From contig NZ_MLFS01000008.1 of assembly GCF_002095485.1 (NCBI RefSeq), forward strand, positions 1-64,000: a stretch of DNA of 64,000 nucleotides, written 5' to 3'. Below, in pieces: positions 1 through 35,167 of the stretch. Made by a program: the position numbers and the translations under genes. The number at the start of each line of letters is the position of its first letter. The stretch's first letter is position 1. The stretch is from Pantoea wallisii (lineage in GTDB: Bacteria; Pseudomonadota; Gammaproteobacteria; Enterobacterales; Enterobacteriaceae). Under the pieces are notes generated by a model. That model had not been told where the DNA came from. It was given only the letters and a program-made list of their open reading frames with translations, and searched no databases.

Positions 1-183
1 ACCAAATGTTAGCCCACCTAAGTATCTCAAAGTCTAGTCAAATCTTTAACTTCAAACACTTACCTCAAGTTAATAGCCCATTAACGTTCACCACTGTATT
101 TCAAAATCCACTCTGTTTAGTTGGTACATATGTTGGTATGTTAAGTTCGATATTGCAGATACCATCATCTGAGGGTTTTTAGT

Positions 184-1440
184 ATGGCGCTCACAGAGTT
201 AAAAGTAAGAAATACAAAGCCTTCTGATAAACCTGTCAAAATGACCGACGGTAATGGTATGCACCTGTTGATCACCACAAGTGGTTCCAAGTACTGGCGT
301 TTTCAGTATCGCTTCGCTGGTAAACAGAAAATTCTCGCACTGGGAGTTTATCCAGAGGTTTCATTGTCAGAAGCCAGACGAAGAAGAGATGAAGCCCGTC
401 AGCTCGTTGCAAACCATGTAGACCCAAGTGAAAAGCGCAAAGCAGAAAAGATTGAGAACAAAGGCTTGCTAACATTTGAGCAAGTTGCACGACAATGGCA
501 TACCAGTAACAGAACCTGGTCAGACAGTCATAGAACCACCGTATTGAACAGCCTTGTTACCCATTTGTTCCCTGTCATCGGCAAACGTTATCTTAGCGAT
601 CTAAAGACTCGTGATTTGTTGGTTCCGCTGAAAAAAGCAGAAGCATCAGGACACAATGAATTAGCTTCCCGATTACAACAACGCATTACGGCGGTGATGA
701 GGTATGCCGTTCACAATGCATTGATTGAACAAAATCCTGCAAACGACCTCGCTGGTGCAGTTGTTTCCGCTAAAAGTGTCCATCGCCCTGCCCTTTCTCT
801 GGAACGATTGCCAGAGCTTATGAACCGTTTGGAAGCATATAAAGGAAGAGGCATTACCCAAATTGCAGTGCAGTTAACACTCCTGACCTTTGTCCGTTCG
901 AGTGAACTGCGATTTGCTCGCTGGTCAGAAGTTGATCTCAAAAATTCACTGTGGACTATCCCCGGAAAGCGACAACCTATGAAAGGGGTCAAATATTCTG
1001 CAAGAGGGGCAAAAATGAAAACGCCTCATTTGGTTCCATTAAGCTCACAAGCCAAAGCACTTATGGAAGAGCTTCATACGATCAGTGGTAACAAAGAACT
1101 TATGTTCATTGGTTTTACCGGGGACGACAAACCTATCAGTGAAAACACTGTCAACAAAGCACTTAGGGCGATGGGCTACGATACGAAAGCTGAAGTCTGC
1201 GGGCATGGTTTCAGGACTATGGCATGTAGTGCCTTAATCGAATCGGGATTATGGTCGAGAGATGCTGTGGAAAGACAAATGAGCCACCAGGAACGCAACA
1301 GTGTCCGGGCTGCTTACATACATAAAGCGGAGCATTTGGAAGAACGGAAACTCATGTTGCAATGGTGGGCTGACTACTTAGAAGCTTGTAAAGAAGAAGC
1401 ACAGACACCTTTTTCCTTCTCTATTCAGCATTCAGAATAG
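184..1440 (+). CDS. P4-type tyrosine recombinase (island integrase)
   Basis: 418-aa site-specific integrase. The N-terminus has the DUF4102-like arm-binding fold of P4/IntS integrases (KxTDGxGMHLL, then YRFAGKQKILALGVYPEVSL). A SAM-like core-binding domain follows at about 100-200 and the catalytic domain from about 205. Visible active-site pieces are the Arg of the FVRSSELR box, the HGFR (HxxR) box and the C-terminal RAAYIH tyrosine. Length is normal for the family, so it is probably intact. It presumably excises and integrates the AT-rich segment to its right. The matching tRNA or tmRNA attachment site is not in the window and should lie left of position 1. The start is preceded only by a weak RBS (GAGGG). 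The 183 bp upstream are AT-rich and hold no gene I can support. Confidence 0.95.
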   Translation: MALTELKVRNTKPSDKPVKMTDGNGMHLLITTSGSKYWRFQYRFAGKQKILALGVYPEVSLSEARRRRDEARQLVANHVDPSEKRKAEKIENKGLLTFEQVARQWHTSNRTWSDSHRTTVLNSLVTHLFPVIGKRYLSDLKTRDLLVPLKKAEASGHNELASRLQQRITAVMRYAVHNALIEQNPANDLAGAVVSAKSVHRPALSLERLPELMNRLEAYKGRGITQIAVQLTLLTFVRSSELRFARWSEVDLKNSLWTIPGKRQPMKGVKYSARGAKMKTPHLVPLSSQAKALMEELHTISGNKELMFIGFTGDDKPISENTVNKALRAMGYDTKAEVCGHGFRTMACSALIESGLWSRDAVERQMSHQERNSVRAAYIHKAEHLEERKLMLQWWADYLEACKEEAQTPFSFSIQHSE

Positions 1441-1684
1441 TGAGTAACAAACGATACGTATTTAATATTTTATAATCGAGAACTCGATGTAGGCTGCGAA
1501 TATCTATTAAGAATTCAAAGCTTCCTTTTGTAATATAAGTTCAATGGGGTTATTCATTAGCATATCGAAACAAATCTGAAATTTGTGGTAAGAAACTCCG
1601 CGATTTGGATCAATAAGTTCAAACCGTATAAGAGCCAGCAATCAATTCCTGGCTTTTATATTTTATAAAAAAATTACAGATATT

Positions 1685-2217
1685 GTTCGAGTAGGTGTCC
1701 CTGAAGACATGCTTTGTTCAGCTTTGAACATAAGTTCAGATTCATTAAAAAGTGATCTATCAGTTCTTAAAGGCATATGCCCTGAGGTTATAGAATTATT
1801 TAATGATAGAGATATACCTAAAAACACATTTATGATCATAAAAAGAATGTTCCCTTTTAGGCAAATAGAATGTGCAAACCTAATGATAAAATTTGATAAT
1901 TATTCAAGGATTTTTGCTCAATCGCTTTATCACAGTTCATCACCTGGGCTTTTAAACGACAAAGGTAAACCTAACATTGATGAGAGATCTGGTAATAGAA
2001 AAGCAATTGAAAGGCTTGAAAAAGAGATGACTCAGGTCCATTTCGATACACAAAAGATAAAAGAAAACTACGGTTCCAATAGCTTGAAGCTAACGATCGT
2101 TATCTCTCACATAAAAAAATACTCGAAAACCCTAAGGTTTTCCATTGGCTTCTTAGGAATAAACAAGATTAACTTAGTGAACTTACCAAGATATCTGACA
2201 TTGAGAAATTAGCTTAA
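1685..2217 (+). pseudogene. RepB/ParB-like partition protein C-terminal remnant
   Basis: The reading frame (ATG at 1709) matches the C-terminal domain of RepB-type plasmid partition proteins (PF07506-like). Recognisable pieces are a GICPEVIELF segment, the RQIECANLMI box, and the LEKEM...YG segment. Similarity continues upstream of the ATG without a start (VRVGVPED, 1685-1708), so the N-terminal ParB-like part is missing. After an A7 run at 2113-2119 the match moves to another frame (ILENPKVFHWLLRNKQD), which is then cut by a TAA at 2170-2172 before resuming (LSELTKISDIEKLA) and ending at 2217. Truncation, frameshift and an internal stop together indicate real decay, although the A7 shift alone could be a sequencing error. 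Such genes are typical cargo of integrase-bearing islands. The 1441-1684 stretch is AT-rich and shows no intact gene. Confidence 0.65.
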
Positions 2218-2261
2218 AAAAGCATGATCATTCAGTTTAGTTAGTTCGAATCGAAAAATGC

Positions 2262-2289
2262 TTGCTTTCGTAATTTATTTTATTAAAAT
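2262..2289 (+). promoter_or_regulatory. Putative sigma-70 promoter for the 2296-2530 RNA
   Basis: TTGCTT (2262-2267), 16-bp spacer, TAAAAT (2284-2289; five of six bases of the -10 consensus). The predicted start is about 2296, which is exactly the first base of a 14-bp inverted repeat. No ORF follows, which supports a non-coding transcript. Confidence 0.45.
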
Positions 2290-2295
2290 GCAGTC

Positions 2296-2530
2296 TACCA
2301 CTGAGGCACTCTTTCCTGCCAACTCCCATAGTATGCTTGCTTTGCACATGGGGTGTAAAGGCTATCAGTAGCTGACTGAGATAAGATTGAGTAAAAACCA
2401 TGAATAACAAATGTGTGCTGGTATGCCAGTATCAACGTTTTCGGTTTGGACGGTGGGAAACGGTGTGTCAGCACCTCCGTTCCCTACCTAACCGTTAATG
2501 ATTGATGGTGCCTCAGTGGTAACCCTTTTT
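2296..2530 (+). ncRNA. Structured RNA candidate with retron-like architecture
   Basis: Two perfect 14-bp inverted repeats, TACCACTGAGGCAC at 2296-2309 and its complement at 2508-2521, enclose 198 bp with no convincing ORF. Inside on the + strand lie a stem at 2340-2347/2353-2360 (one G-T pair, loop ATGGG), small stems at about 2361-2372 and 2416-2431 (loop TATG), and a long hairpin at 2442-2494 built of stacked helices (CGGTT/AACCG, GGT/ACC, GGGAA/TTCCC, CGG/CCG, GTG/CAC, loop TCAG). A T5 run at 2526-2530 follows the second repeat. Paired ends, short hairpins first and one long hairpin last, plus a private promoter, resemble a retron msr-msd with a1/a2 repeats. No reverse transcriptase gene is present in the window, and I cannot point to a canonical priming guanosine directly after the first repeat. 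Alternatives are a MITE-like element or another structured sRNA. Confidence 0.45.
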
Positions 2531-4718
2531 ATTCTGCAATTTCTTTGTCAATTTCCACTCCAAACATTCGGTTGTAATGCGGTAAATCATCGGTTTTATT
2601 AAAGACATCCTTAAAGATATCGAAATATTTTTCAGTACTTCCCCTGCCTAAGTTATTTATATTTGAAGAATCTAAATGTGACCCTCTGTGCATATACCGA
2701 CAGAAGGACTTATAAGTAATATCATTTTCTGATTCTGCAAGTTGTTCCAATGCTATTTTAAGGTTATCCAGCTTACAAGAAAAAGAAAAATAATACTCAA
2801 GGATGTTTCGCATTACATTCGGAAGAATAACAGGATTTACAATACCATCCTTCACATTTTTTAATAACTCCCAATAGGATTCATATTCATTTTTTATATC
2901 ACCTTTAGACATAGTAATAACATCACTAAATTCATTCTTCACCACTCTCAATAAACTGTATTGCTTTTCAAAATTCTTCACTTTAGGAGGCGCTAACTTT
3001 AGAAGCTCCTGAAAGAAGAACAAATTATGTGTGAGTATCAGAATTTTAGCATCTGATGGCATACCTTGAATAATTCGATAATGTATTAATGACGATATCT
3101 CATAAATGTAATCATGTGATAAACTTGATATAGGGTCATCTATGACAATTATTTTATCTTTAAGATCTCCTTCTTCGAATTGACCTTCGCAACACTCTAA
3201 GAAATACAGGAAGGTTATTATTGTTTTCTCCCCTTCACTTAAAGATTTATAAATTTCAACATTGTCATTTCCTCTGTGTATTTGAAAGAAATTCCTTTCG
3301 TGTGCTTTTTTAATCTCTAAACCACTTAGGCCTAATCTTTTGAGTGAAGAATTTATTTTATCTACAGTTTCATCCATATTAGAAACTTGTTTTCTAAGTT
3401 CTGAAAGCCTATCTTTTTCCTGCTGAACTTCTCTTTCAATGACTGCCTTTCTTTCAAGCATTAAACTCTTATCACCATTCAACTCATCCATATTGACTTT
3501 ATTATTATCAATTAAATCACCGCATAAATTCCTTAAGACCATCCAGAGTTTATTTGAAAGGTTAGAAACACTTATTTCATATTCATTTAATCTTTCATTG
3601 ATTTCTTTTATTTCTCCATTCAAACTTTTTATTCTTGCATTTAACTTATCATGAATATTTGATGAATCAATAAGTGATATTACTGCTGATGGCTTTTCGA
3701 TCTTTTCTTTGAGGGCGCTTTTGTTCAGTACAAGTGATTGCCCGATCTGTTTGATGAGGTTCCAGATACTATCGTCATTAGAAATATAACCCGAGCCATT
3801 CAATGAATCTTCTAAGTTTTTTATGTATTCATCACAAGCATTGGAGTAGTTATTATGGATACCTTTCAGATCATTTAATTTTTTTTCATATGTTTCGTCA
3901 AAGACATCTCTTATTGCTTTTAAGAAATCATTATTAACTGTATCACTTTGGCAAAATGGGCATCTCGTGTCACTAACATAACCTAATCCTAACTTGACCC
4001 AATCAGCATTGCCTAACTCTTCAATAACATTTGAAAGGTAACTATTAGATGATGGGATTAATGGCGTTAGGAGTAATTCTTCCTGCTGTATATTTAAGAT
4101 AGGCATTGATGGGTGATAAATTGAACTGAAAGAAGAAGTTTTATTATTTTTTAATTTTTTATATTCATTTAAAACATCACCTGAACTATCCTCATCTTTT
4201 TTATCCTGTATGCATATTTTACTATACAGGCTATCTTTTCTTAAACTCTTTGTCATCAACTCAGTGAGTTCAGTTGTTCTAATGTGTGCTGTTTTTTTCC
4301 ATACAGCTTCTTTGCAGCTATTCTCAAGCTTTATAAGCATTTCATCTTTTTCTTTAACTTCATTATCCAGACGAATTAGCCTACCTTTCAAACTTGCTAT
4401 TTTTTTATCTGAATGTTTTATCTCCTCCATCACTTCTTTGTTACTTTGGCTTAGAGTAAAAACTCCTGGTTGTTCTGATTTATGATAAAAAGAGTCTTCT
4501 ACGAACTGACTATTATAAACGATATAATTATAGTCACCTTCTCTACTAAAAGAGCATTCATTGTATGCCACATTAGATGGACTGTAAAAATATCCTGAGA
4601 TAGTTGATTTACCACTTCCATTCTGTCCATAAATAAGATTAACTTTCTTACTCAAATCTATGTTAATGCTTCTTTCTTTAGAGTAGCTTCTTACATTTTT
4701 AATTACTAACTGTGCCAT
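2529..4718 (-). CDS. AAA_13-type ATPase with zinc hook, RloC/PrrC-like
   Basis: 729 aa from the ATG at 4718, chosen because AAGGAAGG sits just upstream; the longer frame to 4772 lacks an RBS. ABC/Rad50-type ATPase split by a coiled coil: Walker A GQNGSGKST (31-39), zinc-hook-like CPFC (253-256) in the middle, signature SLSEGEK (492-498), Walker B IIVIDDP (523-529) and H-loop LTHN (562-565). The C-terminal 100 residues carry R637-x3-E641 and a later R674-x6-H681. This pattern resembles the catalytic residues of the anticodon nucleases PrrC and RloC and the HEPN RNase signature, but related motifs also occur across AAA_13 proteins not shown to be nucleases. A hairpin at 4761-4786 separates it from the upstream genes, so it probably has its own promoter. 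A defence function by RNA cleavage is inference. AT-rich like the rest of the island. Confidence 0.85.
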   Translation of the reverse strand: MAQLVIKNVRSYSKERSINIDLSKKVNLIYGQNGSGKSTISGYFYSPSNVAYNECSFSREGDYNYIVYNSQFVEDSFYHKSEQPGVFTLSQSNKEVMEEIKHSDKKIASLKGRLIRLDNEVKEKDEMLIKLENSCKEAVWKKTAHIRTTELTELMTKSLRKDSLYSKICIQDKKDEDSSGDVLNEYKKLKNNKTSSFSSIYHPSMPILNIQQEELLLTPLIPSSNSYLSNVIEELGNADWVKLGLGYVSDTRCPFCQSDTVNNDFLKAIRDVFDETYEKKLNDLKGIHNNYSNACDEYIKNLEDSLNGSGYISNDDSIWNLIKQIGQSLVLNKSALKEKIEKPSAVISLIDSSNIHDKLNARIKSLNGEIKEINERLNEYEISVSNLSNKLWMVLRNLCGDLIDNNKVNMDELNGDKSLMLERKAVIEREVQQEKDRLSELRKQVSNMDETVDKINSSLKRLGLSGLEIKKAHERNFFQIHRGNDNVEIYKSLSEGEKTIITFLYFLECCEGQFEEGDLKDKIIVIDDPISSLSHDYIYEISSLIHYRIIQGMPSDAKILILTHNLFFFQELLKLAPPKVKNFEKQYSLLRVVKNEFSDVITMSKGDIKNEYESYWELLKNVKDGIVNPVILPNVMRNILEYYFSFSCKLDNLKIALEQLAESENDITYKSFCRYMHRGSHLDSSNINNLGRGSTEKYFDIFKDVFNKTDDLPHYNRMFGVEIDKEIAE

Positions 4719-4760
4719 TGATACCTTCCTTTTATCCTGCAGGACACAAATATAATATTC

Positions 4761-4786
4761 AAAATGGCTCATTAATGAGCCATTTT
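4761..4786. terminator. Palindromic hairpin between orf93 and the ATPase gene
   Basis: AAAATGGCTCA-TTAA-TGAGCCATTTT is a perfect 11-bp stem with a 4-nt loop. On the minus strand it lies after the stop codon of the 93-aa gene and ends in TTTT, so it can terminate the hxs-orf93 transcript. The ATPase gene would then start a separate unit. Confidence 0.6.
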
Positions 4787-4797
4787 ATTGATAAGTA

Positions 4798-5079
4798 TCA
4801 ATAGTTATTCCAGTTATCTTGAAGCCACGAAGTGACATTCTTGTGACTTCTGACATCTCCCGGTAAATATTCTCTTATCATTTTCTCTGTTTTAAGTGCT
4901 GACTCTTTACTTTTAAAAGAATGCTTTTCTGCAAACCTATTTATGAAATGAAGAACTTCATATCCTTCGTTTCTGCTGAGCAATGTGCTGTCAGGCTTAC
5001 CTGTTTTTTTAGGATCGTCATCACCTATAGCAGTCCAACTATATGTATATTGTAAATCAGATTTATTTATAAGGGTCAT
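4798..5079 (-). CDS. Unknown 93-aa protein downstream of hxsA
   Basis: I do not recognise this protein. The start at 5079 is chosen for its strong GGAGG RBS; the frame extends to 5139 without one. The product is soluble, charged and rich in Lys, Asp and Ser, with no signal peptide, membrane segment or cysteine. It begins MTLINKSDLQYTYSW and ends in WLQDNWNNY, with a predicted helical middle (FINRFAEKHSFKSKESALKTEKMIREYL). It lies 56 bp after the hxsA stop on the same strand, ahead of a terminator-like hairpin, so it is probably the last gene of the hxs transcription unit. Whether it serves the Hxs system or the neighbouring ATPase cannot be told from sequence. Confidence 0.7.
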   Translation of the reverse strand: MTLINKSDLQYTYSWTAIGDDDPKKTGKPDSTLLSRNEGYEVLHFINRFAEKHSFKSKESALKTEKMIREYLPGDVRSHKNVTSWLQDNWNNY

Positions 5080-5135
5080 AATAACCTCCAAAATATAATT
5101 GATGATATTATCGGTTTGAGCACTATTTACTTCTT

Positions 5136-5774
5136 TCAACGAGCTAAAATACTTAATGAATTCAACAACTGAGTATCCAAGGTTTCCCTTACCGGTGTAG
5201 GCAATCCATTTGCAACTCTATAATTCTTAATAGCAGTTCGTGTCGCAGGTCCCATGCTCCCGTCAATATTACCGTTGTAAAAACCTTTATCGAGCAAGGC
5301 GAACTGCACTCTCATGATCAACCGCTTACGTTTTTCTGTATCCGAAGTCAGCCCACTACTTGCTCGATTAGCACCTGTGGTTCCTGCTGAGTTTGTTGTG
5401 GTTGTGCTATCTGTGTCATTAGAGCGAAGTGAACGGACAGAGGAGGAGGAGGAAGACGACGAACGAGTTCCTGAACTGGATGAGTCTGAAGTGCTAGGGG
5501 AACTGTATGTTTTTGGATAATAAGGAGTGCTTCCACCATAGTAGCCACCGCCTGATGAGGAACGGTGTGAGCTGTGGCTACGGTGAGAACTGTGACTTCT
5601 GTGTCCTGCAATGTAGAACGGCACTTCGGTGTTGAGCGGGGCTATCACCAAATCATGTTCGTTCAATGTCATACCAGGTAAGTCACTGGCACCAGTAGAC
5701 GAATCACTTGCCCAAACAGAGTTATTAAGAGCCAAAAAACCAGGAAGGAGAGCCGCGAAATTAAACTTTTTCAT
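5136..5774 (-). CDS. hxsA: His-Xaa-Ser repeat protein HxsA
   Basis: 212 aa from the ATG at 5774, whose ATGA overlaps the stop of hxsC; the longer frame to 5852 runs inside hxsC. Residues 1-23 look like a Sec signal peptide (MKKFNFAALLPGFLALNN...WA). Residues 58-72 are five tandem His-Xaa-Ser triplets (HRS HSS HRS HSS HRS), followed by Gly/Tyr and a long Ser/Thr-rich linker. The C-terminal 55 residues (QFALLDKGFYNGNIDG...PATRTAIKNYR) form a PG_binding_1-like peptidoglycan-binding domain. It is the presumed substrate of the two radical SAM enzymes next door. The architecture predicts an exported wall-associated protein whose His-X-Ser tract is modified. The family is defined in databases, but I know of no established modification or function. 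Confidence 0.92.
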   Translation of the reverse strand: MKKFNFAALLPGFLALNNSVWASDSSTGASDLPGMTLNEHDLVIAPLNTEVPFYIAGHRSHSSHRSHSSHRSSSGGGYYGGSTPYYPKTYSSPSTSDSSSSGTRSSSSSSSSVRSLRSNDTDSTTTTNSAGTTGANRASSGLTSDTEKRKRLIMRVQFALLDKGFYNGNIDGSMGPATRTAIKNYRVANGLPTPVRETLDTQLLNSLSILAR

Positions 5775-6883
5775 ATTATTGGTCTCGGAGGTTGATGAAA
5801 ACGGCCTTTTGATGAACTGAAATAACCAGCACAGGAAGACTTCTGAGTGCATTCATCACATTCTTTGGGATAGTAATTTTTCCAGTCAGAAATCGACTGA
5901 GTTGCAAAATTCCATGCCCTTTCAGGAAGGTGGCATAGTGGGTAATTGAAGATGGTAAGAGGGATACCTGACCTGTGTGCAGTGTTTACAGCCGAAAGGA
6001 TTTGTTCGCTGTAGTTGTCGTGCTCTATGAAGATTGATGACCAGTTCTTACGGGCCCATCCAATCGACTCCAGTCCCATCAGAGAGATTTGGTTAATGTT
6101 CGAGAACACACGGCCAGCAAACTCTACAAGGTCATCAAGCTCTGTATAGTTCGCCTGAGTAGGAATGACTCTCAGTTCGATGTTGATACCTGAGTTACCG
6201 GCATTGATCAGTCCCCTGACTGTTTCATCAAAGGCTCCCTCGCTTCCGACCAGATAGTCGTGCACTGATGCTCTTGAAGAATAAAGCGGTATCCCAAACG
6301 TGATTTTGATCTTATCGCTTCTTTCCTTCATCTGCTGGGTAAAGCTGACATCCGCAAACTTCCTTCCGTTGGTTAGAACATGCAGTGCTGTGTCAGGGGA
6401 GTTTTCGATTATGAAGTCCAGAAAATGCAGGAAGTCTTCGCCATAGAGCAAAGGCTCTCCCCCGCTCACTCCCACTACTCCATTCAGAGAGAAAGAAGCT
6501 ATAGCCAGAGCTGACTGGTTAAGAAGCCAGTCATCGTTTCCAGCTTTAGGAGGCTGAGAACAAAACAGGCAACTGTTGTTGCACCTTTCAGTGACCAGCA
6601 CAGTGTTATGGTTTGCTCTACGGGACAGTATCACCCGGAGCATGTTGCCGTTGTTAATGATCCCAATGTCACCATCTTCTATGGAATCGAACAGTTCCTG
6701 GCTCACAATCGAGTCTGCAAAATATGCAGGCAGTCTGGAATTGAGTTGTGTCGCAGTGACAAGCAAATTTGGCAGATAGAATTGAGGATTCTCGGGCTTG
6801 GTTTTACATAGGCAATAGAAGCCTTGCTGAACTGGCAAGTCTGATGAAAACCGGAAAATATCGTTTCTCAGCACCTCAAACAT
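5771..6883 (-). CDS. hxsC: His-Xaa-Ser system radical SAM maturase HxsC
   Basis: 370 aa from the ATG at 6883, preceded by AGGTGGGC and overlapping the last codons of hxsB; the upstream in-frame ATG at 6934 lies deeper inside hxsB. The radical SAM cluster motif CxxxCxxC is C101-C105-C108 (ERCNNSCLFC). A glycine-rich GGEP follows (GVSGGEPLLYG), and a C-terminal cysteine set (CDECTQKSSC) could bind a second cluster. The last bases overlap hxsA by ATGA. With HxsB it forms the paired-maturase signature of the Hxs system. A peptide-modifying reaction on HxsA is inferred from genome context and radical SAM chemistry. Confidence 0.93.
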   Translation of the reverse strand: MFEVLRNDIFRFSSDLPVQQGFYCLCKTKPENPQFYLPNLLVTATQLNSRLPAYFADSIVSQELFDSIEDGDIGIINNGNMLRVILSRRANHNTVLVTERCNNSCLFCSQPPKAGNDDWLLNQSALAIASFSLNGVVGVSGGEPLLYGEDFLHFLDFIIENSPDTALHVLTNGRKFADVSFTQQMKERSDKIKITFGIPLYSSRASVHDYLVGSEGAFDETVRGLINAGNSGINIELRVIPTQANYTELDDLVEFAGRVFSNINQISLMGLESIGWARKNWSSIFIEHDNYSEQILSAVNTAHRSGIPLTIFNYPLCHLPERAWNFATQSISDWKNYYPKECDECTQKSSCAGYFSSSKGRFHQPPRPII

Positions 6884-8270
6884 AAGCCCACCTTTTGAGC
6901 ATCTCAGCCATTGGTCCATTCTGAGAGATTTCATTCAGCAGGAAGCGGAACATCCCTTTGTGATACTGGCAGAAGGTAGACCGACTCTTGTCACCCACAG
7001 GCTCGCCCTGAACACTGATGTTCTGACAAGGATCTGCTCCACAGAAAGGTTGGTAAGCACAGGTATCACAACCGGGCATGGCGAAATTAAATGAAGATGA
7101 GAGAGCGGAACGGTAGTATTCGTTGCTACTGAATGAGAGTGAAGCAAACTCTCCTGCACTGAAATCTGCTTCGGGATTTACTTTCTGGAGCATACGGCTT
7201 TCGTCGCTGCCGTAGATCTTGCCGTCATAGTTAAACAGGATGCAGTTCAGCACGACTCCGCTTGGTGATTTCAGATCTGCATAACCACTGAAGCCCGAAT
7301 TGAAAATTCGCTTTAGATGGATTGAAGCCGAATGCTCAACGACAGGTATGCCCTTCAGGTTCTGAAGCAACACTTCCTGCATTAACTTCTTATAAAACTC
7401 AAAATATTCAGGCATTGAAAAAGTGAAGCTCTGCTTCTGAGCAAACCCATAAGGACTCACTGGCCTGATAAACATGTCGGTTAGGCCAAGAGACAGATGA
7501 GCATCCACTATGGAGGCTGGCTCTTTTGTTAGCTCTTTTGTAACTGTGGTTACCGTAGCTACCCGGTTTGCTCCCAGCTCTTCTGTGATTTTTCTAATGC
7601 CCGTGACAGCTTTGTTGTGAGCCTGAGAGTCGGTGAGGATACGATTCTTGTTGTGGACGGCTTCATTACCATCCAGCGAGACGGAGAAAGTGATGTTCCG
7701 TCTTTTAACCCAAGAGAGGATGCTTTCATCGAGTATTGAGAGACTGGTGGCAATAACCATTTCGAAAGCATCACTACCTAATGAACTCTCGCATTCCTCA
7801 TAAATTGCCCGAACAAGATCGAACCTGAGAAGCGGTTCTCCGCCCTGCACTTCTATCTTATATGGCGGAGTGCCAAGTTTCTTAATAGTGCTGACGATTT
7901 GCGGTATCAGTTCTGGGTTGAGGTCATAACCATCAGCGGTAACCGATGCTCTGCTGACCTGGCAATACTTGCATGTATGATCACACCTGAGAGTCGGCAC
8001 AATCATAAAGATTGGTCTGACGGCCAGTTCGTTCATCAGTCGCTTGGCAAAGGCAGAACTCAGTGAGGCTTTTGAAACTGCCTGAGTTGCATCGTCTGCA
8101 ATGAACAATCTGCTTTTGAGTAGCCGGGAGGTTGTTTGTTCTGGAGGGAATTTGTTATCGACAAGAAGATGTAGTTCTTCGTTATCGATGAAGCTGTGAA
8201 AGCCAGCAAGGTTGCTGATGAAGACTTTGCCATTGCTCAGGCGGTCAAAATTGAATGGCATCGTATTCAT
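6876..8270 (-). CDS. hxsB: His-Xaa-Ser system radical SAM maturase HxsB
   Basis: 464 aa. The start at 8270 overlaps the stop of hxsD by ATGA, so translation is probably coupled. The N-terminal 85 residues resemble a peptide-recognition region. The radical SAM motif is C96-C100-C103 (LRCDHTCKYC), with the GGEP motif in VQGGEPLLRF. The C-terminus is SPASM-like, with cysteines in CDTCAYQPFCGADPC and a final FCQYHKG, consistent with auxiliary iron-sulfur clusters. SPASM proteins commonly modify ribosomally made peptides, so this is probably the main enzyme acting on HxsA. No frameshift or missing ligand is seen. Confidence 0.93.
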   Translation of the reverse strand: MNTMPFNFDRLSNGKVFISNLAGFHSFIDNEELHLLVDNKFPPEQTTSRLLKSRLFIADDATQAVSKASLSSAFAKRLMNELAVRPIFMIVPTLRCDHTCKYCQVSRASVTADGYDLNPELIPQIVSTIKKLGTPPYKIEVQGGEPLLRFDLVRAIYEECESSLGSDAFEMVIATSLSILDESILSWVKRRNITFSVSLDGNEAVHNKNRILTDSQAHNKAVTGIRKITEELGANRVATVTTVTKELTKEPASIVDAHLSLGLTDMFIRPVSPYGFAQKQSFTFSMPEYFEFYKKLMQEVLLQNLKGIPVVEHSASIHLKRIFNSGFSGYADLKSPSGVVLNCILFNYDGKIYGSDESRMLQKVNPEADFSAGEFASLSFSSNEYYRSALSSSFNFAMPGCDTCAYQPFCGADPCQNISVQGEPVGDKSRSTFCQYHKGMFRFLLNEISQNGPMAEMLKRWAYV

Positions 8271-8539
8271 TCGGCAAGTCTCGAATCGATGCTCCTCAGA
8301 ACATTGTCGATAATTGAAGTCCTTACCTGCACGGTATGGACCTGAAGCTTTTCTCTGAGCTTATAATCATTTAGCAGTCGCGCGAACTCGAACTCAATCT
8401 CGTCGTTCAAATGTTCGAACGACACCAGCCAATATTTATCGTCTTCATCAAGCTTCCAGTGGGCAATAGAACTCATCCAATAGAGGCTGTTTCGAAGCAC
8501 CCATTCAGAATACATTGTTTTTAATATGTTTTTTTGCAT
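8267..8539 (-). CDS. hxsD: His-Xaa-Ser system protein HxsD
   Basis: 90-aa protein with the family hallmark LLNDYxLRE (ARLLNDYKLRE). Its size and position as first gene, overlapping hxsB by ATGA, match HxsD. There is no cysteine, signal peptide or membrane segment. The start at 8539 is the first ATG, with GGGTGG about 10 nt upstream. Its role is unknown; an adaptor or recognition protein for the maturases is plausible. Confidence 0.92.
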   Translation of the reverse strand: MQKNILKTMYSEWVLRNSLYWMSSIAHWKLDEDDKYWLVSFEHLNDEIEFEFARLLNDYKLREKLQVHTVQVRTSIIDNVLRSIDSRLAE

Positions 8540-9091
8540 AACATTACCACCCAGAAAGTATCAAAGTAGAAATACAATAGTTTTAATTACCTTTCAAAGA
8601 ATGTAGCTAACCGCGAAAAAAATTATCAAAAACGGCAACAATCCATAAGCTGCTGTTTTAAAATGATTTTATTATGGCAGGATACAGAATATTCTTATTT
8701 CGCAATAATAATCATCGCGTATTGGAATGTAAATTTGTTTTGTGGATTTTTATGATACTTACCAAAGTGTTTACATTAATTTATAATTTGATTAAATTTC
8801 GAGCATCAAAGCTCATCAGCTAACTTATTGATTTAAAATCTAATAATGGATAATCGATCAACTGTCTGAAAAACCAGCGGAAGAGGTATGTTCAATATGT
8901 TAACAGTCACTTCATGATTGGGTGATCATTGAGAAAGGTGAAAGCCCTTGATTTAAATAATGAATTTAATGAAGGCTCACAAGATATCTAAAATATCCCG
9001 TGTTAGCTTTATCACTTCATATAAATTTTTGCTATCACACGGAGTAGATCACCTTACTGGTGCAATTCGATTCAGTCGCCACGAAACGATG
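8540..9091. other. AT-rich gene-free stretch at the island's right side
   Basis: About 550 bp between hxsD and the AraC gene. It is strongly AT-rich until about 9050, where composition jumps to the GC-rich pattern of the following genes. This is the likely right boundary of the island. I see no RNA gene, and no direct repeat of the window's left end that would define an attachment site. Confidence 0.5.
8569..8597 (-). promoter_or_regulatory. Putative promoter of the hxsDBCA operon
   Basis: On the minus strand TTGAAA (8597-8592) and TATTTC (8574-8569) are 17 bp apart and lie just upstream of hxsD. The -10 match is weak. Confidence 0.3.
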
Positions 9092-9955
9092 TCAGCACTG
9101 CCGCCATACCGAAGGCGCAACGCCGTGCTGCTGGCGAAAGCGGTTACTGAAGTGGCTGGAGGAGTGAAAACCGCAGCGCAGTGCGATCTCGGTGACGGGC
9201 AAGGTGCTGAATTTAAGCAGTTGCTGTGCGGTCTCCATGCGGCGACGCATGACATATTGATGCGGCGCTTCGCCCATGCTGCTACGAAACATCCGCGCAA
9301 AGTGGTATTCGCTCAGCGCCGCCTCGGCTGCCAGCTGCGCCAGGGTGAGCGGCTGGTCCAGCTGCGCATCAATGTATGCCACTATCCGGCGCAGCACTGC
9401 CGGGGCCAGACCGCCGCGCACCTGCGGAGCCTGCCACTGCACATCGCTGTAACGCTGAAGCAAATGCGTCATCAGCAGCGTTGAGGCGCTGCTCAGCATC
9501 AGCTGATTTGCCGGCTGCTGCCAGTCAGCGCTGAGCAGAAAATGGCGATACAGCTGCGTAATGCGATCGTCATCCGCAAAGATCTTCTCATGCAGCGTGA
9601 GCTGTGCCGGGCTGCGATCCCACACCTGCTCGCCGAGGTGGCGCAGATGGGCATCCGTGCAGTAGAGATGAACAAAGGAGAGATCGGCGCGCAAATCCCA
9701 GGTGGATTCGGTGCCCGATGGCATCAGGCAGAAGCGATCCGGCGCGCCGCCGTTACGCCAGCCGTGCGGCGTTTTGTGCCAGGTGTCGTAACCATCCGCC
9801 GTATAGAGGCTCAGCGTGTGGTGATCGCTCAGGTTGGTAACCCGATCGCCACTGTTGAACCACGCCGCCAGTTTGATACCGCTCGACAACTGTACGCTGT
9901 CACGTAGCTGTGCTTTGTGGCGTTGCAGTAGAGTGAAGGTTTGGTATTCAGGCAT
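9092..9955 (-). CDS. AraC family transcriptional regulator
   Basis: 287 aa. The N-terminal ~170 residues form a sensing/dimerisation domain with no clear ligand motif. The C-terminal ~100 residues hold two helix-turn-helix units (PLTLAQLAAEAALSEYHFARMF and PVTEIALRCGFHSSSHFSNRFR), the classic AraC signature. It is divergent from the EamA exporter gene 180 bp away, so it probably controls that gene. The effector is unknown. Confidence 0.9.
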   Translation of the reverse strand: MPEYQTFTLLQRHKAQLRDSVQLSSGIKLAAWFNSGDRVTNLSDHHTLSLYTADGYDTWHKTPHGWRNGGAPDRFCLMPSGTESTWDLRADLSFVHLYCTDAHLRHLGEQVWDRSPAQLTLHEKIFADDDRITQLYRHFLLSADWQQPANQLMLSSASTLLMTHLLQRYSDVQWQAPQVRGGLAPAVLRRIVAYIDAQLDQPLTLAQLAAEAALSEYHFARMFRSSMGEAPHQYVMRRRMETAQQLLKFSTLPVTEIALRCGFHSSSHFSNRFRQQHGVAPSVWRQC

Positions 9956-31185: not shown

Positions 31186-31261
<76 letters not shown>

Positions 31262-31305
31262 ACATCTGGAACGTATTTCTTCGGTTCAAACCGTTGGGAG
31301 CGGTT

Positions 31306-31381
<76 letters not shown>

Positions 31382-31418
31382 GTACCGAAAAAACCGCCGG
31401 GTTAACCCGACGGACGGC

Positions 31419-31447
31419 ATAATATGAAACGGCTGTTGGAGTGTCAA
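31419..31447 (-). promoter_or_regulatory. Promoter of the tRNA-Ala operon
   Basis: Minus strand TTGACA (31447-31442), exact 17-bp spacer, TATTAT (31424-31419), then a GC-rich discriminator: a strong sigma-70 promoter suited to stringent control. Confidence 0.85.
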
Positions 31448-31743
31448 CGGCAAATTCCTGTTCTGTGTTCGATCGCTGAAAAAGGCGGCAACCCGATGCC
31501 ACAATGGCCTTTTTTCCGCCGTATTACGGCGCGCCTGCCCTTCTCTGTCCGATCTTCATTAAACAGCAGCTCAACAACCGCTCACCCTGGGGTTAATTTC
31601 AGGTTAAAGATGTTAGCGCCAGGCTTGTTTTCGTTAATGGTGCGTGTAAAACTTAGCGCGCTAATTAACCGGACAACCCTCCAGGGTTAACACTCGTTGC
31701 CCGGTCAGCACTTCCTCCTTGTTTAATAAAAGAAAAGTGAATT

Positions 31744-32532
31744 ATGTCTTTGCATACACCAAAAGAGATCGCACAGCTGGCGATTCAGTCTGGCGTGGCT
31801 AAAAGCCGCCTGCCGGTTTCCACCTTATTAATTCTTGGCTTTATGGCCGGTGCATTTATTGCTACCGGGTTCCTGCTTGATCTGCACGTTATTAACCAGT
31901 TACCGGCTGAGTGGGGATCGTTCTCCAGTTTCCTCGGCGCGGCGGTGTTCCCGGTTGGCCTGATTCTTACCGTGCTGGCCGGCGGCGAACTGCTGACAGG
32001 CAATATGATGACGCTGCCAATTGCCTGGTTTGCCCGTCGTATTAGCGGTTTCAGCGTGGTGCGTAACTGGTTTTGGGTCACCGTCGCCAATTTTATTGGC
32101 AGCGTTGCGGTAGCATGGTTCTTTGGACATATGCTGGGCATGACCGAAGGGGACTACCTGAAGAAAACCGTCGCCATTGCCCATGCGAAAGTGAATGCTG
32201 ACTTCCTGCACGCTTTCATCTCAGGCATTGGCTGTAACTGGCTGGTCTGCCTGGCGGTATGGCTGGCTTTTGCCAGTAAAGATATGGTCGGTAAAATTAT
32301 GGGTATGTGGTTCCCGGTAATGGCGTTTGTGGCCATTGGCTTCCAGCACGTTATCGCCAACATGTTCATCGTGCCTGCGGCTATTTTTGCCGGTCAGATG
32401 AGCTGGGCAGAGTTTTTACCCAATGTTATTGCGGTATTTTTAGGAAACGGTGTGGGCGGTGCGATCTTTGTTGGCCTCACCTATTTCCTCGCTTTCCGTC
32501 CGGAGCAGCCGGCCGTTAGCGAAGCGCAGTAA
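31744..32532 (+). CDS. Formate/nitrite transporter (FNT) family protein
   Basis: 262-aa membrane protein with six segments in the FNT fold. LAGGELLTGNMMTLPIAWF matches the conserved loop region and GIGCNWLVCLAVWLAF is the characteristic helix with the gating loop; FQHVIANMFIVP holds the family's central His. It transports formate, nitrite or a similar small anion; the substrate cannot be told. The preceding 360 bp hold the tRNA-Ala promoter and nothing else I recognise. Confidence 0.9.
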   Translation: MSLHTPKEIAQLAIQSGVAKSRLPVSTLLILGFMAGAFIATGFLLDLHVINQLPAEWGSFSSFLGAAVFPVGLILTVLAGGELLTGNMMTLPIAWFARRISGFSVVRNWFWVTVANFIGSVAVAWFFGHMLGMTEGDYLKKTVAIAHAKVNADFLHAFISGIGCNWLVCLAVWLAFASKDMVGKIMGMWFPVMAFVAIGFQHVIANMFIVPAAIFAGQMSWAEFLPNVIAVFLGNGVGGAIFVGLTYFLAFRPEQPAVSEAQ

Positions 32533-32643
32533 TCTAAATATGCCTTTTGTCACCCCGCAAAAGGCATTTTCTGCCTGGATTACTTCTCCCCGTAACGTTT
32601 TGTTGTAATATGTAGAGCTAATGTATTTAACAGGGACAGCATC

Positions 32644-32997
32644 GTGAAAAAGGAATGGCTTACCCCCGAAGAGCTCGCGCTGGAAACGGGCTACAGTCGG
32701 CAGACGGTGAATAAATGGATCAAGCGTGAAAACTGGACAACCACGCCCAAGCCCGGTGTACAGGGCGGTAAGGCGCGATTGATTCATATTGATGAACGCG
32801 TAAAGAGCTTTATTCAGTCCACTCGCCACGCGAGCGAACCGGCGGCTAATTACGGTGCGCAGCAAAATACGTTACCTGCGTTATTAATAAATTCTGTCCA
32901 GCAAATGACGACTGTCGAACAGGAACAACTGGCGGCACTGCTGTTACGGGAAGGAATCAGGGGCGTGCTGGAGAGACTGGGAATCCAGGAAGAGTAA
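32644..32997 (+). CDS. yfeC: DNA-binding protein YfeC (DUF1323)
   Basis: 117 aa. An N-terminal MerR/excisionase-like helix-turn-helix (MKKEWLTPEELALETGYSRQTVNKWIKRENW) continues with TTPKPGVQGGKARLIH, nearly the E. coli YfeC sequence. The C-terminal VEQEQLAALLLREGI helix is also shared. Small putative regulator with target unknown. As in E. coli it is convergent with gltX, but yfeD is absent. Confidence 0.92.
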   Translation: MKKEWLTPEELALETGYSRQTVNKWIKRENWTTTPKPGVQGGKARLIHIDERVKSFIQSTRHASEPAANYGAQQNTLPALLINSVQQMTTVEQEQLAALLLREGIRGVLERLGIQEE

Positions 32998-33029
32998 AAA
33001 AGCCGGGAGCGTGAGCTTCCGGCTTTTTT
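32996..33029. terminator. Bidirectional terminator between yfeC and gltX
   Basis: An AAAAAGCCGG...CCGGCTTTTTT stem-loop. The stem begins inside the yfeC stop codon. Confidence 0.9.
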
Positions 33030-33075
33030 GTTACTGGCACGGATAACAGCAGCCTGCTGGCTGCCGTCTGCCTGC

Positions 33076-34497
33076 TTATGCCTGCGCTTCGCGCTCTGCA
33101 ATAAAGGCCAGCGCTTTTTCGATACGCGCCACGCTACGGCTGCGGCCAATGGCTTCAACCGTGACATCCAGCGCAGGGGACTGGCCCGCACCGGTTACGG
33201 CGACGCGCAGCGGCATACCCACTTTACCCATGCCCAGCTCCAGCTCGTCCGCTGCCGCCTGAATAGCATGATGCACATTTTCCGCACTCCATGCGCTGTC
33301 ACTGATGGCCGCCAGCTTGTCACGTACCACTTCCAGCGGCTGACGCGCTACCGGACGCAGGTGCTTCTTCGCAGCATCGGCATCAAAGGCCTCAAACTCT
33401 TCATAGAAGTAACGGCACGACGCCGCGATTTCGACCAGTGTCTTACAGCGCTCGCCCAGCAGTGTAACCAGCTTCGCCAGCTCCGGACCGGTACGGGTAT
33501 CGATCTTCTGCTGCTCAATGTGCCACTGCAGCTGCGTTGCCACATACTCTGGCGGCAGCGTATTGATGTAGTGGTGGTTCAGCCACTGCAGTTTTTCCGT
33601 GTTGAATGCGCTGGCGGACTTGCTCACTGCATCCAGCGTAAACAGTTCGGTCATCTCAGGTACGCTGAAGATCTCCTGATCGCCATGTGACCAGCCAAGA
33701 CGCACCAGGTAGTTGAGCAGCGCTTCCGGCAGATAGCCGTCATCACGGTACTGCATTACGCCCACGGCACCGTGGCGCTTGGAGAGCTTCTTCCCGTCAT
33801 CGCCCAGAATCATGGAGACGTGCGCATAGGTTGGCACCTCTGCACCGATCGCTTTCAGGATGTTGATCTGACGCGGCGTGTTATTGATATGGTCTTCGCC
33901 ACGAATAACGTGCGTGATCCCCATATCCCAGTCATCCACCACCACACAGAAGTTATAGGTTGGTGAGCCGTCGGTACGGCGGATAATCAGATCATCCAGC
34001 TCCTGATTGCTGAACTCAATCGGGCCACGGATCTGGTCGTCAAAGATCACCGAGCCCTCCTGCGGATTGCGGAAACGCACTACGCAGGGTTCATTATCAG
34101 CGTGATGGTCATGGCTATCGCGGCAGCGGCCGTCGTAACGCGGCTTCTCACCCTTCGCCATCTGCTCTTCACGCAGGGCTTCCAGGCGCTCTTTCGAGCA
34201 ATAGCATTTATAAGCTGTACCGGCTTCCAGCATCTCGTCGATGACATGGTTGTAGCGATCAAAACGTTTGGTCTGGTAGTACGGGCCTTCATCCCAATCG
34301 AGGCTCAGCCAGTTCATGCCATCCATGATGGCTTCAATGGCTTCCGGGGTAGAACGCTCCAGATCGGTATCTTCAATACGCAGGACGAATTCGCCCTTGT
34401 TATGACGCGCATAGAGCCAGGAGTAAAGCGCAGTACGCGCACCGCCGACGTGCAGGTAACCGGTCGGGCTGGGTGCGAAGCGGGTTTTGATTTTCAT
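33076..34497 (-). CDS. gltX: Glutamyl-tRNA synthetase GltX
   Basis: 473-aa class I synthetase. The HIGH-type motif is in [11 protein letters not shown], the zinc cysteines follow CYCSKERL...CRDSH, and the KMSKS motif is KLSKRHG. Charges tRNA-Glu in the cytoplasm. Length equals the E. coli enzyme (471) within two residues. Divergent from the tRNA-Val/Lys operon. Confidence 0.97.
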
Positions 34498-34736
34498 TCA
34501 GCATTGCCTTAAGTGCGCAGGTTTTATTGTCTGGATGACAAAAAAACGGGTTAACGCGAAAAAACAGTGCGCATATTCTAACAGGTGAAGCTGATTCCTC
34601 AATCATTGTCACGGCCGCAGCGTGGAGAGGAAGAGGTTTTTCTGCTAATAAAACCAGCACATTGGCTAAAAGCACTGCATGATGTCTAAATTTAAAGCGA
34701 ACGCGCAGTTAACTTTTAAAAAGCTTTTAAAAAGCG

Positions 34737-34764
34737 TTGACTCACTTTGAAGGATCCCTATAAT
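34737..34764 (+). promoter_or_regulatory. Promoter of the tRNA-Val/tRNA-Lys operon
   Basis: TTGACT (34737-34742), 16-bp spacer, perfect TATAAT (34759-34764), then a GCGACTCC discriminator. An A/T-rich UP-like tract (CTTTTAAAAAGCTTTTAAAA) lies just upstream. Confidence 0.9.
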
Positions 34765-34781
34765 GCGACTCCACACAGCGG

Positions 34782-34857
34782 GGGTGATTAGCTCAGTTGG
34801 TAGAGCATCTCCTTTACACGGAGGGGGTCGGCGGTTCGAGCCCGTCATCACCCACCA
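34782..34857 (+). tRNA. valU: tRNA-Val(TAC), copy 1
   Basis: 76 nt with CCA; anticodon loop TTTACAC, T-arm GGCGGTTCGAGCCCGTC. Acceptor GGGTGAT pairs with ATCACCC. Confidence 0.95.
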
Positions 34858-34894
34858 CTCTTAAAGTGGTCCGCAGTGTGCAAGAGTAAAATAT

Positions 34895-34970
34895 GGGCGA
34901 TTAGCTCAGTTGGTAGAGCATCTCCTTTACACGGAGGGGGTCGGCGGTTCGAGCCCGTCATCGCCCACCA
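34895..34970 (+). tRNA. valX: tRNA-Val(TAC), copy 2
   Basis: 76 nt with CCA, identical to copy 1 except the acceptor pair T4-A69 is C4-G69 (GGGCGAT/ATCGCCC). Confidence 0.95.
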
Positions 34971-35011
34971 TATCTTAGTCAGATGACACTCTTGTTAAGC
35001 AGTTCCGAAGT

Positions 35012-35087
35012 GGGCGATTAGCTCAGTTGGTAGAGCATCTCCTTTACACGGAGGGGGTCGGCGGTTCGAGCCCGTCATCGCCCACCA
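35012..35087 (+). tRNA. valY: tRNA-Val(TAC), copy 3
   Basis: 76 nt with CCA, same sequence as copy 2, 41 bp downstream of it. Confidence 0.95.
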
Positions 35088-35091
35088 CTTC

Positions 35092-35167
35092 GGGTCGTTA
35101 GCTCAGTTGGTAGAGCAGTTGACTTTTAATCAATTGGTCGCAGGTTCGAATCCTGCACGACCCACCA
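35092..35167 (+). tRNA. lysV: tRNA-Lys(TTT)
   Basis: 76 nt with CCA; anticodon loop CTTTTAA, T-arm GCAGGTTCGAATCCTGC. Starts only 4 bp after the third tRNA-Val. Its last 18 bases plus the terminator are duplicated 181 bp downstream. Confidence 0.96.

What the first reader, a model, noticed from the sequence alone, without database searches (positions are those of the whole stretch)
4798..8539. Complete His-Xaa-Ser (Hxs) paired radical SAM system with an attached unknown gene
Seen: four overlapping genes (hxsD-hxsB-hxsC-hxsA, joined by ATGA or short overlaps). Two carry radical SAM CxxxCxxC motifs, and the small first gene carries the LLNDYxLRE hallmark. The last gene encodes an exported protein with exactly five tandem His-X-Ser triplets at residues 58-72 and a peptidoglycan-binding C-terminus. 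Known: these families are defined in databases, but the modification and its purpose are, to my knowledge, unestablished. Inferred: HxsB/HxsC modify the His-X-Ser tract before export, giving a wall-anchored RiPP-like product, perhaps for metal binding or competition. The locus is carried on an integrase island.
Basis: partly seen in the sequence, partly recalled or inferred. Interest (0 to 1): 0.78.

Follow-up and report, generated by a model that had tools for sequence, protein, structure and literature searches.

The report
Modified-protein operon with swappable phage-defence cassette
A known but unexplained bacterial protein-modification operon (His-Xaa-Ser system) sits on a mobile island, and in related bacteria the genes directly after it are repeatedly exchanged, in some cases for anti-phage defence systems, which gives a testable hint of what the operon may be for.

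Summary
hxsD-hxsB-hxsC-hxsA (8539-5136, minus strand) pass NCBIfam's curated cut-offs; HxsA has exactly five His-X-Ser triplets at residues 58-72. The families are known; the papers found give no function. In 29 close coding sequences the tract shows 0 amino-acid changes against 3040 synonymous codon differences (pairwise, not independent). HxsB models as a radical SAM maturase with an N-terminal part ordered like a RiPP recognition element. Likeliest chemistry, inferred only: His-Ser (i, i+2) crosslinks.

New is the neighbourhood. The "attached unknown gene" is not an Hxs component. It and an AAA_13 gene form a cassette behind hxsA. Among 49 close loci 37 have a same-strand ORF within 150 bp of hxsA, against 2 of 43 upstream; DNA homology between loci with different cassettes ends at the hxsA stop; at least 18 exchanges are needed. 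The slot holds DUF6119 in 22 loci, and Gabija, Qat, PDC-S06, SIR2, PRTase-CE or PDC-S19 genes in 11. PADLOC genes alone are not significantly commoner than upstream (6 of 20 vs 3 of 20). An anti-phage role for Hxs is suggested, not shown.

The parts
8267..8539 (-). hxsD, 90 aa accessory protein
   Evidence: TIGR03976 91.4 bits; AlphaFold model pLDDT 92.8, beta-alpha-beta-beta-long alpha
6876..8270 (-). hxsB, radical SAM/SPASM-like maturase with an N-terminal domain of RRE-like order
   Evidence: TIGR03978 581.6 bits; model aligns with 5why (CteB, name recalled) from residue 5 to 455, Z 30.4
5771..6883 (-). hxsC, second radical SAM maturase (370 aa from ATG 6883)
   Evidence: TIGR03977 409.9 bits; CxxxCxxC plus four further conserved Cys; start checked
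5136..5774 (-). hxsA, 212 aa: signal-peptide-like N-terminus, five His-X-Ser triplets, Ser-rich linker, PG-binding C-terminus
   Evidence: TIGR03979 162.9 bits; PG_binding_1 25.2 bits; tract at 58-72
5559..5603 (-). HRSHSSHRSHSSHRS tract (hxsA codons 58-72)
   Evidence: 0 nonsynonymous, 3040 synonymous codon differences in 6090 codon comparisons (406 pairs of 29 sequences)
4798..5079 (-). X93, small gene of the exchangeable cassette, not an Hxs component
2529..4718 (-). AAA_13 ATPase (729 aa from ATG 4718; 747 aa as listed to 4772), predicted anti-phage gene PDC-S06; second gene of the cassette
   Evidence: PF13166 379.7 bits; PADLOC PDC-S06 810 bits
4760..4787 (-). terminator-like hairpin between X93 and the AAA_13 gene (weak)
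   Evidence: 8 such sites found in 4600-9100, 3.6 expected
1709..2212 (+). RepB/ParB-like gene, shorter than its relatives, part of the island backbone
   Evidence: PF07506 42.7 bits; 94.5% DNA identity to L004 over 529 bases
184..1440 (+). tyrosine integrase of the island
   Evidence: Pfam Phage_integrase and Arm-DNA-bind_3; sits at tRNA-Arg(CCT) by comparison with L004

Best explanation
This is a canonical His-Xaa-Ser system. HxsB, which seems to carry its own leader-binding domain, and HxsC, with HxsD as accessory, modify the His-X-Ser tract of HxsA in the cytoplasm. The most likely change is His(i)-Ser(i+2) crosslinking, one three-residue ring per triplet. HxsA is then exported by its signal peptide and held at the peptidoglycan by its C-terminal domain. 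On these mobile islands hxsDBCA is the constant first part of an operon-like array whose second part is an exchangeable cassette, in some loci an anti-phage system (here X93 plus an AAA_13 ATPase). I think the modified HxsA most likely serves the same purpose as the cassette: an envelope-level first layer against incoming phage or mobile DNA, expressed together with a cytoplasmic second layer. Shown by sequence: gene families, tract constancy, operon-like order, end of homology at the hxsA stop. Inferred: modification, its chemistry, export, anchoring, co-transcription and anti-phage role.
For: Four families above cut-off. Tract constant in protein while synonymous codons drift; triplet number 5 in most close relatives, 6 in Pectobacterium, Proteus, Morganella and Providencia, 6-8 in Bacteroidota, with the middle residue free (R, S, Y, K, Q, V, G, A). 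HxsB model: three strands then three helices, radical SAM core, SPASM-like end; best match 5why/5wgg, then anSME. Chemistry precedent, passages of the review PMC11002830: C2(His)-Cbeta(i+2) bonds by HaaB, YhhB and ScaB, and a Phe-Ser bond by MscB. Downstream slot: 37 of 49 loci have a same-strand ORF within -10..150 bp (median gap 26) against 2 of 43 upstream, Fisher p 8e-13, loci treated as independent. Homology between loci with different cassettes ends at the hxsA stop (median 0 bp, 95% within 26.5 bp, 1606 ordered pairs). At least 18 cassette changes on the hxs tree. Cassettes: Qat, Gabija, PDC-S06, PDC-S19, SIR2/ThsA-like and PRTase-CE in 11 of 49, DUF6119 in 22 of 49. L004 shares the integrase, RepB and hxs DNA with the window but has DUF6119 in place of X93+AAA_13.
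Against: No hxs protein is a PADLOC defence family; HxsB and HxsC get only weak viperin hits, expected of any radical SAM protein. In a matched set PADLOC-recognised genes are not significantly commoner downstream (6 of 20, four of these genes unscanned) than upstream (3 of 20; p 0.45); the difference depends on counting DUF6119, whose function is unknown. 14 of 49 loci have another gene or nothing recognisable in the slot, one carries an ATP-grasp cluster. The loci are related, some near-identical, and were found by similarity to this system. Cassette labels are more clustered on the tree than shuffled ones (18 changes, shuffled mean 24.1, as low in 0 of 200). Pairs with the same label also often lose homology at the stop (median 1 bp, upper quartile 592), as DUF6119 variants diverge. 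HxsB is no member of a named cyclophane-forming family (YhhB model 47.7 bits against 445). A weak hairpin separates X93 from AAA_13.
Confidence: 0.4

Rival explanations
1. Hxs has its own unrelated function at the envelope (stress, metal handling, wall maintenance), and the hxsA 3' end is merely a cargo insertion point or a recombination anchor on defence-rich islands; the anti-phage neighbours are hitch-hikers.
For: RiPP clusters lie near defence genes in general (passages of PMC12715929). DUF6119 is next to an HxS tract in only 2 of 10 loci from 295 genomes. The Rec/ParB island module occurs without hxs in 3 of 3 fetched regions in which the hxs side is in view; three more end at a contig edge there. 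Upstream genes are PADLOC hits in 3 of 20. hxs also sits on Klebsiella and Enterobacter plasmids beside IS elements.
Against: The exchanged gene is mostly on the same strand and within about 100 bp, whereas the other flank is not (37 of 49 vs 2 of 43); blind insertion would not favour that.
Confidence: 0.4
2. HxsA is a competition factor: a RiPP-like, wall-displayed or released antibacterial product.
For: Paired radical SAM maturases on a precursor-like protein; mobile distribution.
Against: Apart from hxs no cluster of neighbouring ORFs is present in more than 14 of 48 loci (the 14 are integrases), so no immunity, protease or exporter gene accompanies hxs generally (several clusters unidentified). 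The product keeps a peptidoglycan-binding domain in the Enterobacterales, Bacteroidota and Agrobacterium examples scanned.
Confidence: 0.1
3. The His-rich tract is a metal-binding site, with or without radical SAM modification.
For: His every third residue; copper-binding His-crosslinked peptides exist (PMC10206099, search listing only).
Against: Ser is as constant as His, and no other gene cluster accompanies hxs generally; metal binding alone would not need two radical SAM enzymes.
Confidence: 0.1

Closest known systems
His-Xaa-Ser (Hxs) system, TIGR03976-TIGR03979 (Haft and Basu; their paper is not held, recalled, and cited through passages of PMC9062424)
   Same: All four families, order, motifs and tract
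   Different: Here it is the first half of an operon-like array with an exchangeable cassette; not mentioned in the passages seen
Triceptide / three-residue cyclophane maturases (XncB, HaaB, YhhB, ScaB)
   Same: Radical SAM with SPASM-like end; an aromatic or His residue and a partner two residues on
   Different: HxsB falls far below the YhhB and AmcB cut-offs; two enzymes; tandem triplets in a PG-binding protein
CteB (name recalled), sactipeptide maturase, PDB 5WGG/5WHY
   Same: Best structural match of HxsB, aligned from 5 to 455, Z 30.4, rmsd 3.9 over 387 residues
   Different: That enzyme makes thioethers; the HxS tract has no Cys
Anti-phage defence hotspots in mobile elements (for example P2/P4-like prophages, as cited in passages of PMC10250203)
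   Same: A conserved anchor beside a slot with changing defence systems
   Different: The anchor here is itself a four-gene protein-modification operon, on the same strand and immediately upstream

Membership tests
His-Xaa-Ser system | HxsD, HxsB, HxsC and HxsA above curated cut-offs, adjacent, one strand | tested here: met
His-Xaa-Ser system | Tandem His-X-Ser triplets in HxsA | tested here: met
   five, residues 58-72
His-Xaa-Ser system | Signal peptide on HxsA | not testable with these tools
   MKKFNFAALLPGFLALNNSVWA looks like one by eye only
His-Xaa-Ser system | Chemical modification of the tract | not testable with these tools
   needs mass spectrometry
Cyclophane-forming radical SAM maturases (YhhB, AmcB families) | Score above the family cut-off | tested here: not met
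   HxsB 47.7 bits vs 445 (NF041707) and 39 vs 425 (NF041718)
RRE-bearing radical SAM/SPASM maturases (CteB-like architecture) | N-terminal RRE fold (three strands, three helices) before the radical SAM core | tested here: inconclusive
   HxsB model 1-82 has that order and the 5why alignment starts at residue 5; the domain was not searched alone
RiPP recognition element (HxsD) | RRE fold | tested here: inconclusive
   HxsD model is beta-alpha-beta-beta-alpha; best matches are designed ferredoxin-like and KH folds, Z up to 7.8
Known anti-phage system (Hxs genes themselves) | PADLOC family match | tested here: not met
   none for HxsD and HxsA at E 0.01; weak generic viperin hits for HxsB and HxsC
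PDC-S06 / AAA_13 (gene 2529-4718) | Family score | tested here: met
   810 bits and 379.7 bits

The most novel reading that the evidence does not exclude
The Hxs system is the envelope arm of a two-layer anti-phage operon: a peptidoglycan-bound protein with radical-SAM-made His-Ser rings blocks or senses phage DNA entry, and it is paired with a cytoplasmic effector that is swapped at the hxsA stop codon. DUF6119/TIGR04141 would then be an undescribed anti-phage effector.
Probability: 0.25. Interest if true: 0.88.

Novelty: new variant of a known kind. Interest (0 to 1): 0.62.

Why it matters
Hxs has been an orphan in the databases; the few papers found give it no function. A repeated exchange of cassettes, some of them anti-phage systems, with homology ending at the hxsA stop codon gives a concrete hypothesis that can be tested in a laboratory E. 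coli strain. It also nominates DUF6119, which occupies the slot in 22 of 49 loci, and the X93 family as defence candidates, and offers hxsA as a marker for finding new defence genes. If the crosslink idea holds, the tract would be a cell-wall protein decorated with rings so far known from small peptide products.

Tried and rejected
Attached gene as an Hxs component: rejected (4 of 49 loci; relatives beside defence genes). HxsD as the recognition element: its model does not suggest it, but it is not excluded. PADLOC genes alone downstream against upstream: tested, not significant. Right attachment site: only an 8-bp shared word seen by eye. Direct repeats in 1-9300: nothing convincing (20 of 37 families shown). 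Papers: searches for His-Xaa-Ser, HxsA-D, paired radical SAM, HxS motif and TIGR04141/DUF6119 gave no function for Hxs or DUF6119; radical SAM with anti-phage terms led to general co-location of RiPP clusters and defence (passages). Two RRE papers hold no Hxs term. The Haft and Basu paper is not held.

L024 was left out of downstream counts (contig ends 184 bp after hxsA). On the upstream side 43 of 50 close loci had enough sequence. Near-identical loci remain among the 49 (for example L067-L069, L014/L066, L071/L073/L074). Of 27 loci with an upstream ORF of 200 aa or more within 1 kb 20 were scanned; left out were the window, L015, L016, L024, L064, L065 and L072. Of the 20 matching downstream genes four were not scanned (L006, L020, L021, L145), seven are DUF6119 by BLAST. 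The six-triplet row L012 drops out of the tract codon counts by length. An out-of-frame reading of L028 HxsA was discarded (its HxsB aligns in three pieces; not mended). In one search three of six backbone regions end at a contig edge on the side where hxs would lie and say nothing.
Full report
WHAT IS THERE. The four hxs genes lie head to tail on the minus strand: hxsD 8539-8267, hxsB 8270-6876, hxsC 6883-5771, hxsA 5774-5136. Each passes its NCBIfam cut-off. HxsA (212 aa) has a signal-peptide-like start (by eye), five His-X-Ser triplets at 58-72, a Ser-rich linker and a PG_binding_1 end. Behind it, on the same strand, come a 93-aa gene (4798-5079, here X93) and an AAA_13 ATPase (2529-4718; PADLOC PDC-S06, 810 bits). 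A RepB-like gene and a tyrosine integrase complete the island.

THE ISLAND. The window is the start of contig 8 of its genome. In Candidatus Pantoea gossypiicola (L004) the same integrase region (93% over 1538 bases) abuts a tRNA-Arg(CCT), whose last four bases coincide with our first four. In 2 of 5 fetched regions of unnamed relatives that tRNA lies upstream of the AraC-type gene whose homology begins at about 9098 here; in 3 none was found. The island therefore most likely spans about 1-9098 between tRNA-Arg and the AraC-type gene. GC content is 31-47% inside and 58% in the next kilobase. No clear right attachment repeat was found.

DISTRIBUTION. One genome-contig scan gave 32 named loci, mostly Enterobacterales, with Bacteroidota and a Moranbacteria MAG. 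tblastn with HxsB (E <= 1e-5) matches 442 of 72,556 plasmid records, 401 over at least 80% of the query, 332 of the 442 Klebsiella; the weakest are other radical SAM proteins. The operon's DNA matches 154 of 5426 E. coli genomes (96 over at least 80%), all places chromosomal, and HxsB a Leptospira phage. After dropping 8 repeats, 66 distinct loci were examined: 66 have a tract, 64 HxsC by motif, 59 an HxsD-like ORF by motif; L020's HxsC is seen by tblastn, and two HxsD misses start at a contig end (L066, L068). The four genes do travel together.

THE TRACT. Of 30 distinct close coding sequences 29 have five triplets; their 406 pairs give 3040 synonymous and 0 nonsynonymous codon differences in 6090 codon comparisons. 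The signal region gives 3034 and 173, the leader 5242 and 1198, the PG domain 11414 and 3798. Pairs are not independent, but the contrast is plain: the tract is held at the amino-acid level and is not a drifting DNA repeat. In wider relatives the triplet number is 5 to 8 and the middle residue varies while His and Ser stay. Short HxsA proteins occur in the Leptospira phage, Sphingobium and a Moranbacteria MAG, so wall binding is not universal.

THE ENZYMES. The HxsB model (pLDDT 81) begins with three strands and three helices, the order of a RiPP recognition element (recalled), followed by a radical SAM barrel and a partly low-confidence SPASM-like end. Its best match is 5why/5wgg (CteB, name recalled), aligned from 5 to 455, Z 30.4, rmsd 3.9 over 387 residues; anSME scores 28.8. 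So HxsB probably binds the HxsA leader itself. HxsC keeps CxxxCxxC, GGEP and four further cysteines in at least 97% of 64 rows. HxsD (pLDDT 92.8) is beta-alpha-beta-beta-alpha, a common arrangement with no telling match.

CHEMISTRY (inferred). His and Ser two residues apart is the geometry of triceptides: a review (PMC11002830, passages seen) reports C2(His)-Cbeta bonds between residues i and i+2 by HaaB, YhhB and ScaB, and a Phe-Ser bond by MscB. HxsB is not a member of the YhhB or AmcB families by score. It may work like them; that is the most economical proposal, not a result.

THE NEIGHBOURHOOD, THE NEW PART. X93 is not an Hxs gene: it follows hxsA in only 4 of 49 close loci. The window's cassette X93+AAA_13 recurs in L007 and L158; X93 without AAA_13 in L145. 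Elsewhere the same slot holds DUF6119/TIGR04141 (22 of 49; in L016 the ORF starts only 406 bp on), Gabija (L003, L070, L072), Qat (L002, L147), PDC-S19 (L023, gap 320), a SIR2/ThsA-like protein (L154), a PRTase-CE ATPase (L152), or an ATP-grasp cluster (L151); 14 hold something else or nothing recognised. Profile searches scored one or more representatives of each class; the rest were assigned by BLAST identity of 42-90%.

TESTS. (a) A same-strand ORF within -10..150 bp is found downstream in 37 of 49 loci (median gap 26) and upstream of hxsD in 2 of 43; Fisher p 8e-13, loci treated as independent. ORFs were called mechanically: of the 37, six are under 154 aa besides the window's X93 and one is a transposase by annotation (L065); L158, which has X93, counts as a miss. 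(b) Between loci with different cassettes DNA homology stops at the hxsA stop codon: median 0 bp, 95th percentile 26.5 bp, 1606 ordered pairs. Same-label pairs (466) have a median of 1 bp and an upper quartile of 592, since the DUF6119 label joins divergent variants. (c) On an hxsB-hxsC DNA tree of 49 rows the ten cassette labels need at least 18 changes; the least possible is 9, the shuffled mean 24.1, so labels are partly inherited and often exchanged. L070 (Gabija) and L147 (Qat) are sisters with almost identical hxs. (d) Control: the nearest upstream ORF of 200 aa or more within 1 kb is a PADLOC hit in 3 of 20 loci scanned out of 27 eligible, against 6 of the 20 downstream genes of the same loci, four of which were not scanned (p 0.45); with DUF6119 counted, 13 of 20 (p 0.003). 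DUF6119 is not an established defence gene, so enrichment in known defence genes is not proven; the exchange itself is. (e) In seven Bacteroidota loci with the order A-D-B-C, three have PADLOC hits after hxsC on the same strand (L027 second gene HEC-01A 470 bits, L029 AriA-like 65 bits, L030 HNH 49 bits and then HEC-06-like 81 and 84 bits); L026's next gene has none; in L025, L031 and L033 the next ORF is on the other strand and was not scanned.

LIMITS. Loci were found by similarity to this system and are related. DUF6119 stands beside an HxS tract in 2 of 10 loci in 295 genomes of the order. The Rec/ParB island module is in 10 of 295 genomes of the family, two of them with hxs (L142, L146); of six others fetched, three show the hxs side and have no tract, three end at a contig edge there. 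So neither gene set depends on hxs. That RiPP clusters lie near defence genes is known in general (PMC12715929, passages). An exchange point at hxsA was not mentioned in the listings and passages reached through.

VERDICT. The exchange of anti-phage and unknown cassettes directly behind hxsA is, as far as I could see, new, and makes the function of Hxs testable.

Noticed in passing
L004:13202-14824, L011:13156-14766 and 20 further loci: DUF6119/TIGR04141 proteins after hxsA in 22 of 49 close loci; no function in papers found. Candidate anti-phage gene.
   Followed up: partly
L151:7133-9250: The slot after hxsA holds a small ORF, an ATP-grasp protein with an MvdD pre-ATP-grasp domain (graspetide-like is recalled) and a third ORF: perhaps a second kind of RiPP cassette.
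   Followed up: no
   Followed up: no
L025-L027, L029-L031, L033, L078: HxsD of Bacteroidota and the Leptospira phage carries a C-terminal tail like SDPVGFDP, absent from Enterobacterales HxsD.
   Followed up: no
L190, L191: Rec/ParB island modules without hxs have, by eye, type I restriction-like genes nearby (not scanned).
   Followed up: no
L065 (Enterobacter asburiae plasmid): hxs lies about 6 kb from mcr-10.1 among IS elements (annotation of the record).
   Followed up: no
window 31186-35167: tRNA genes (2 Ala, 3 Val, 1 Lys) in the backbone, not linked to the island.
   Followed up: no
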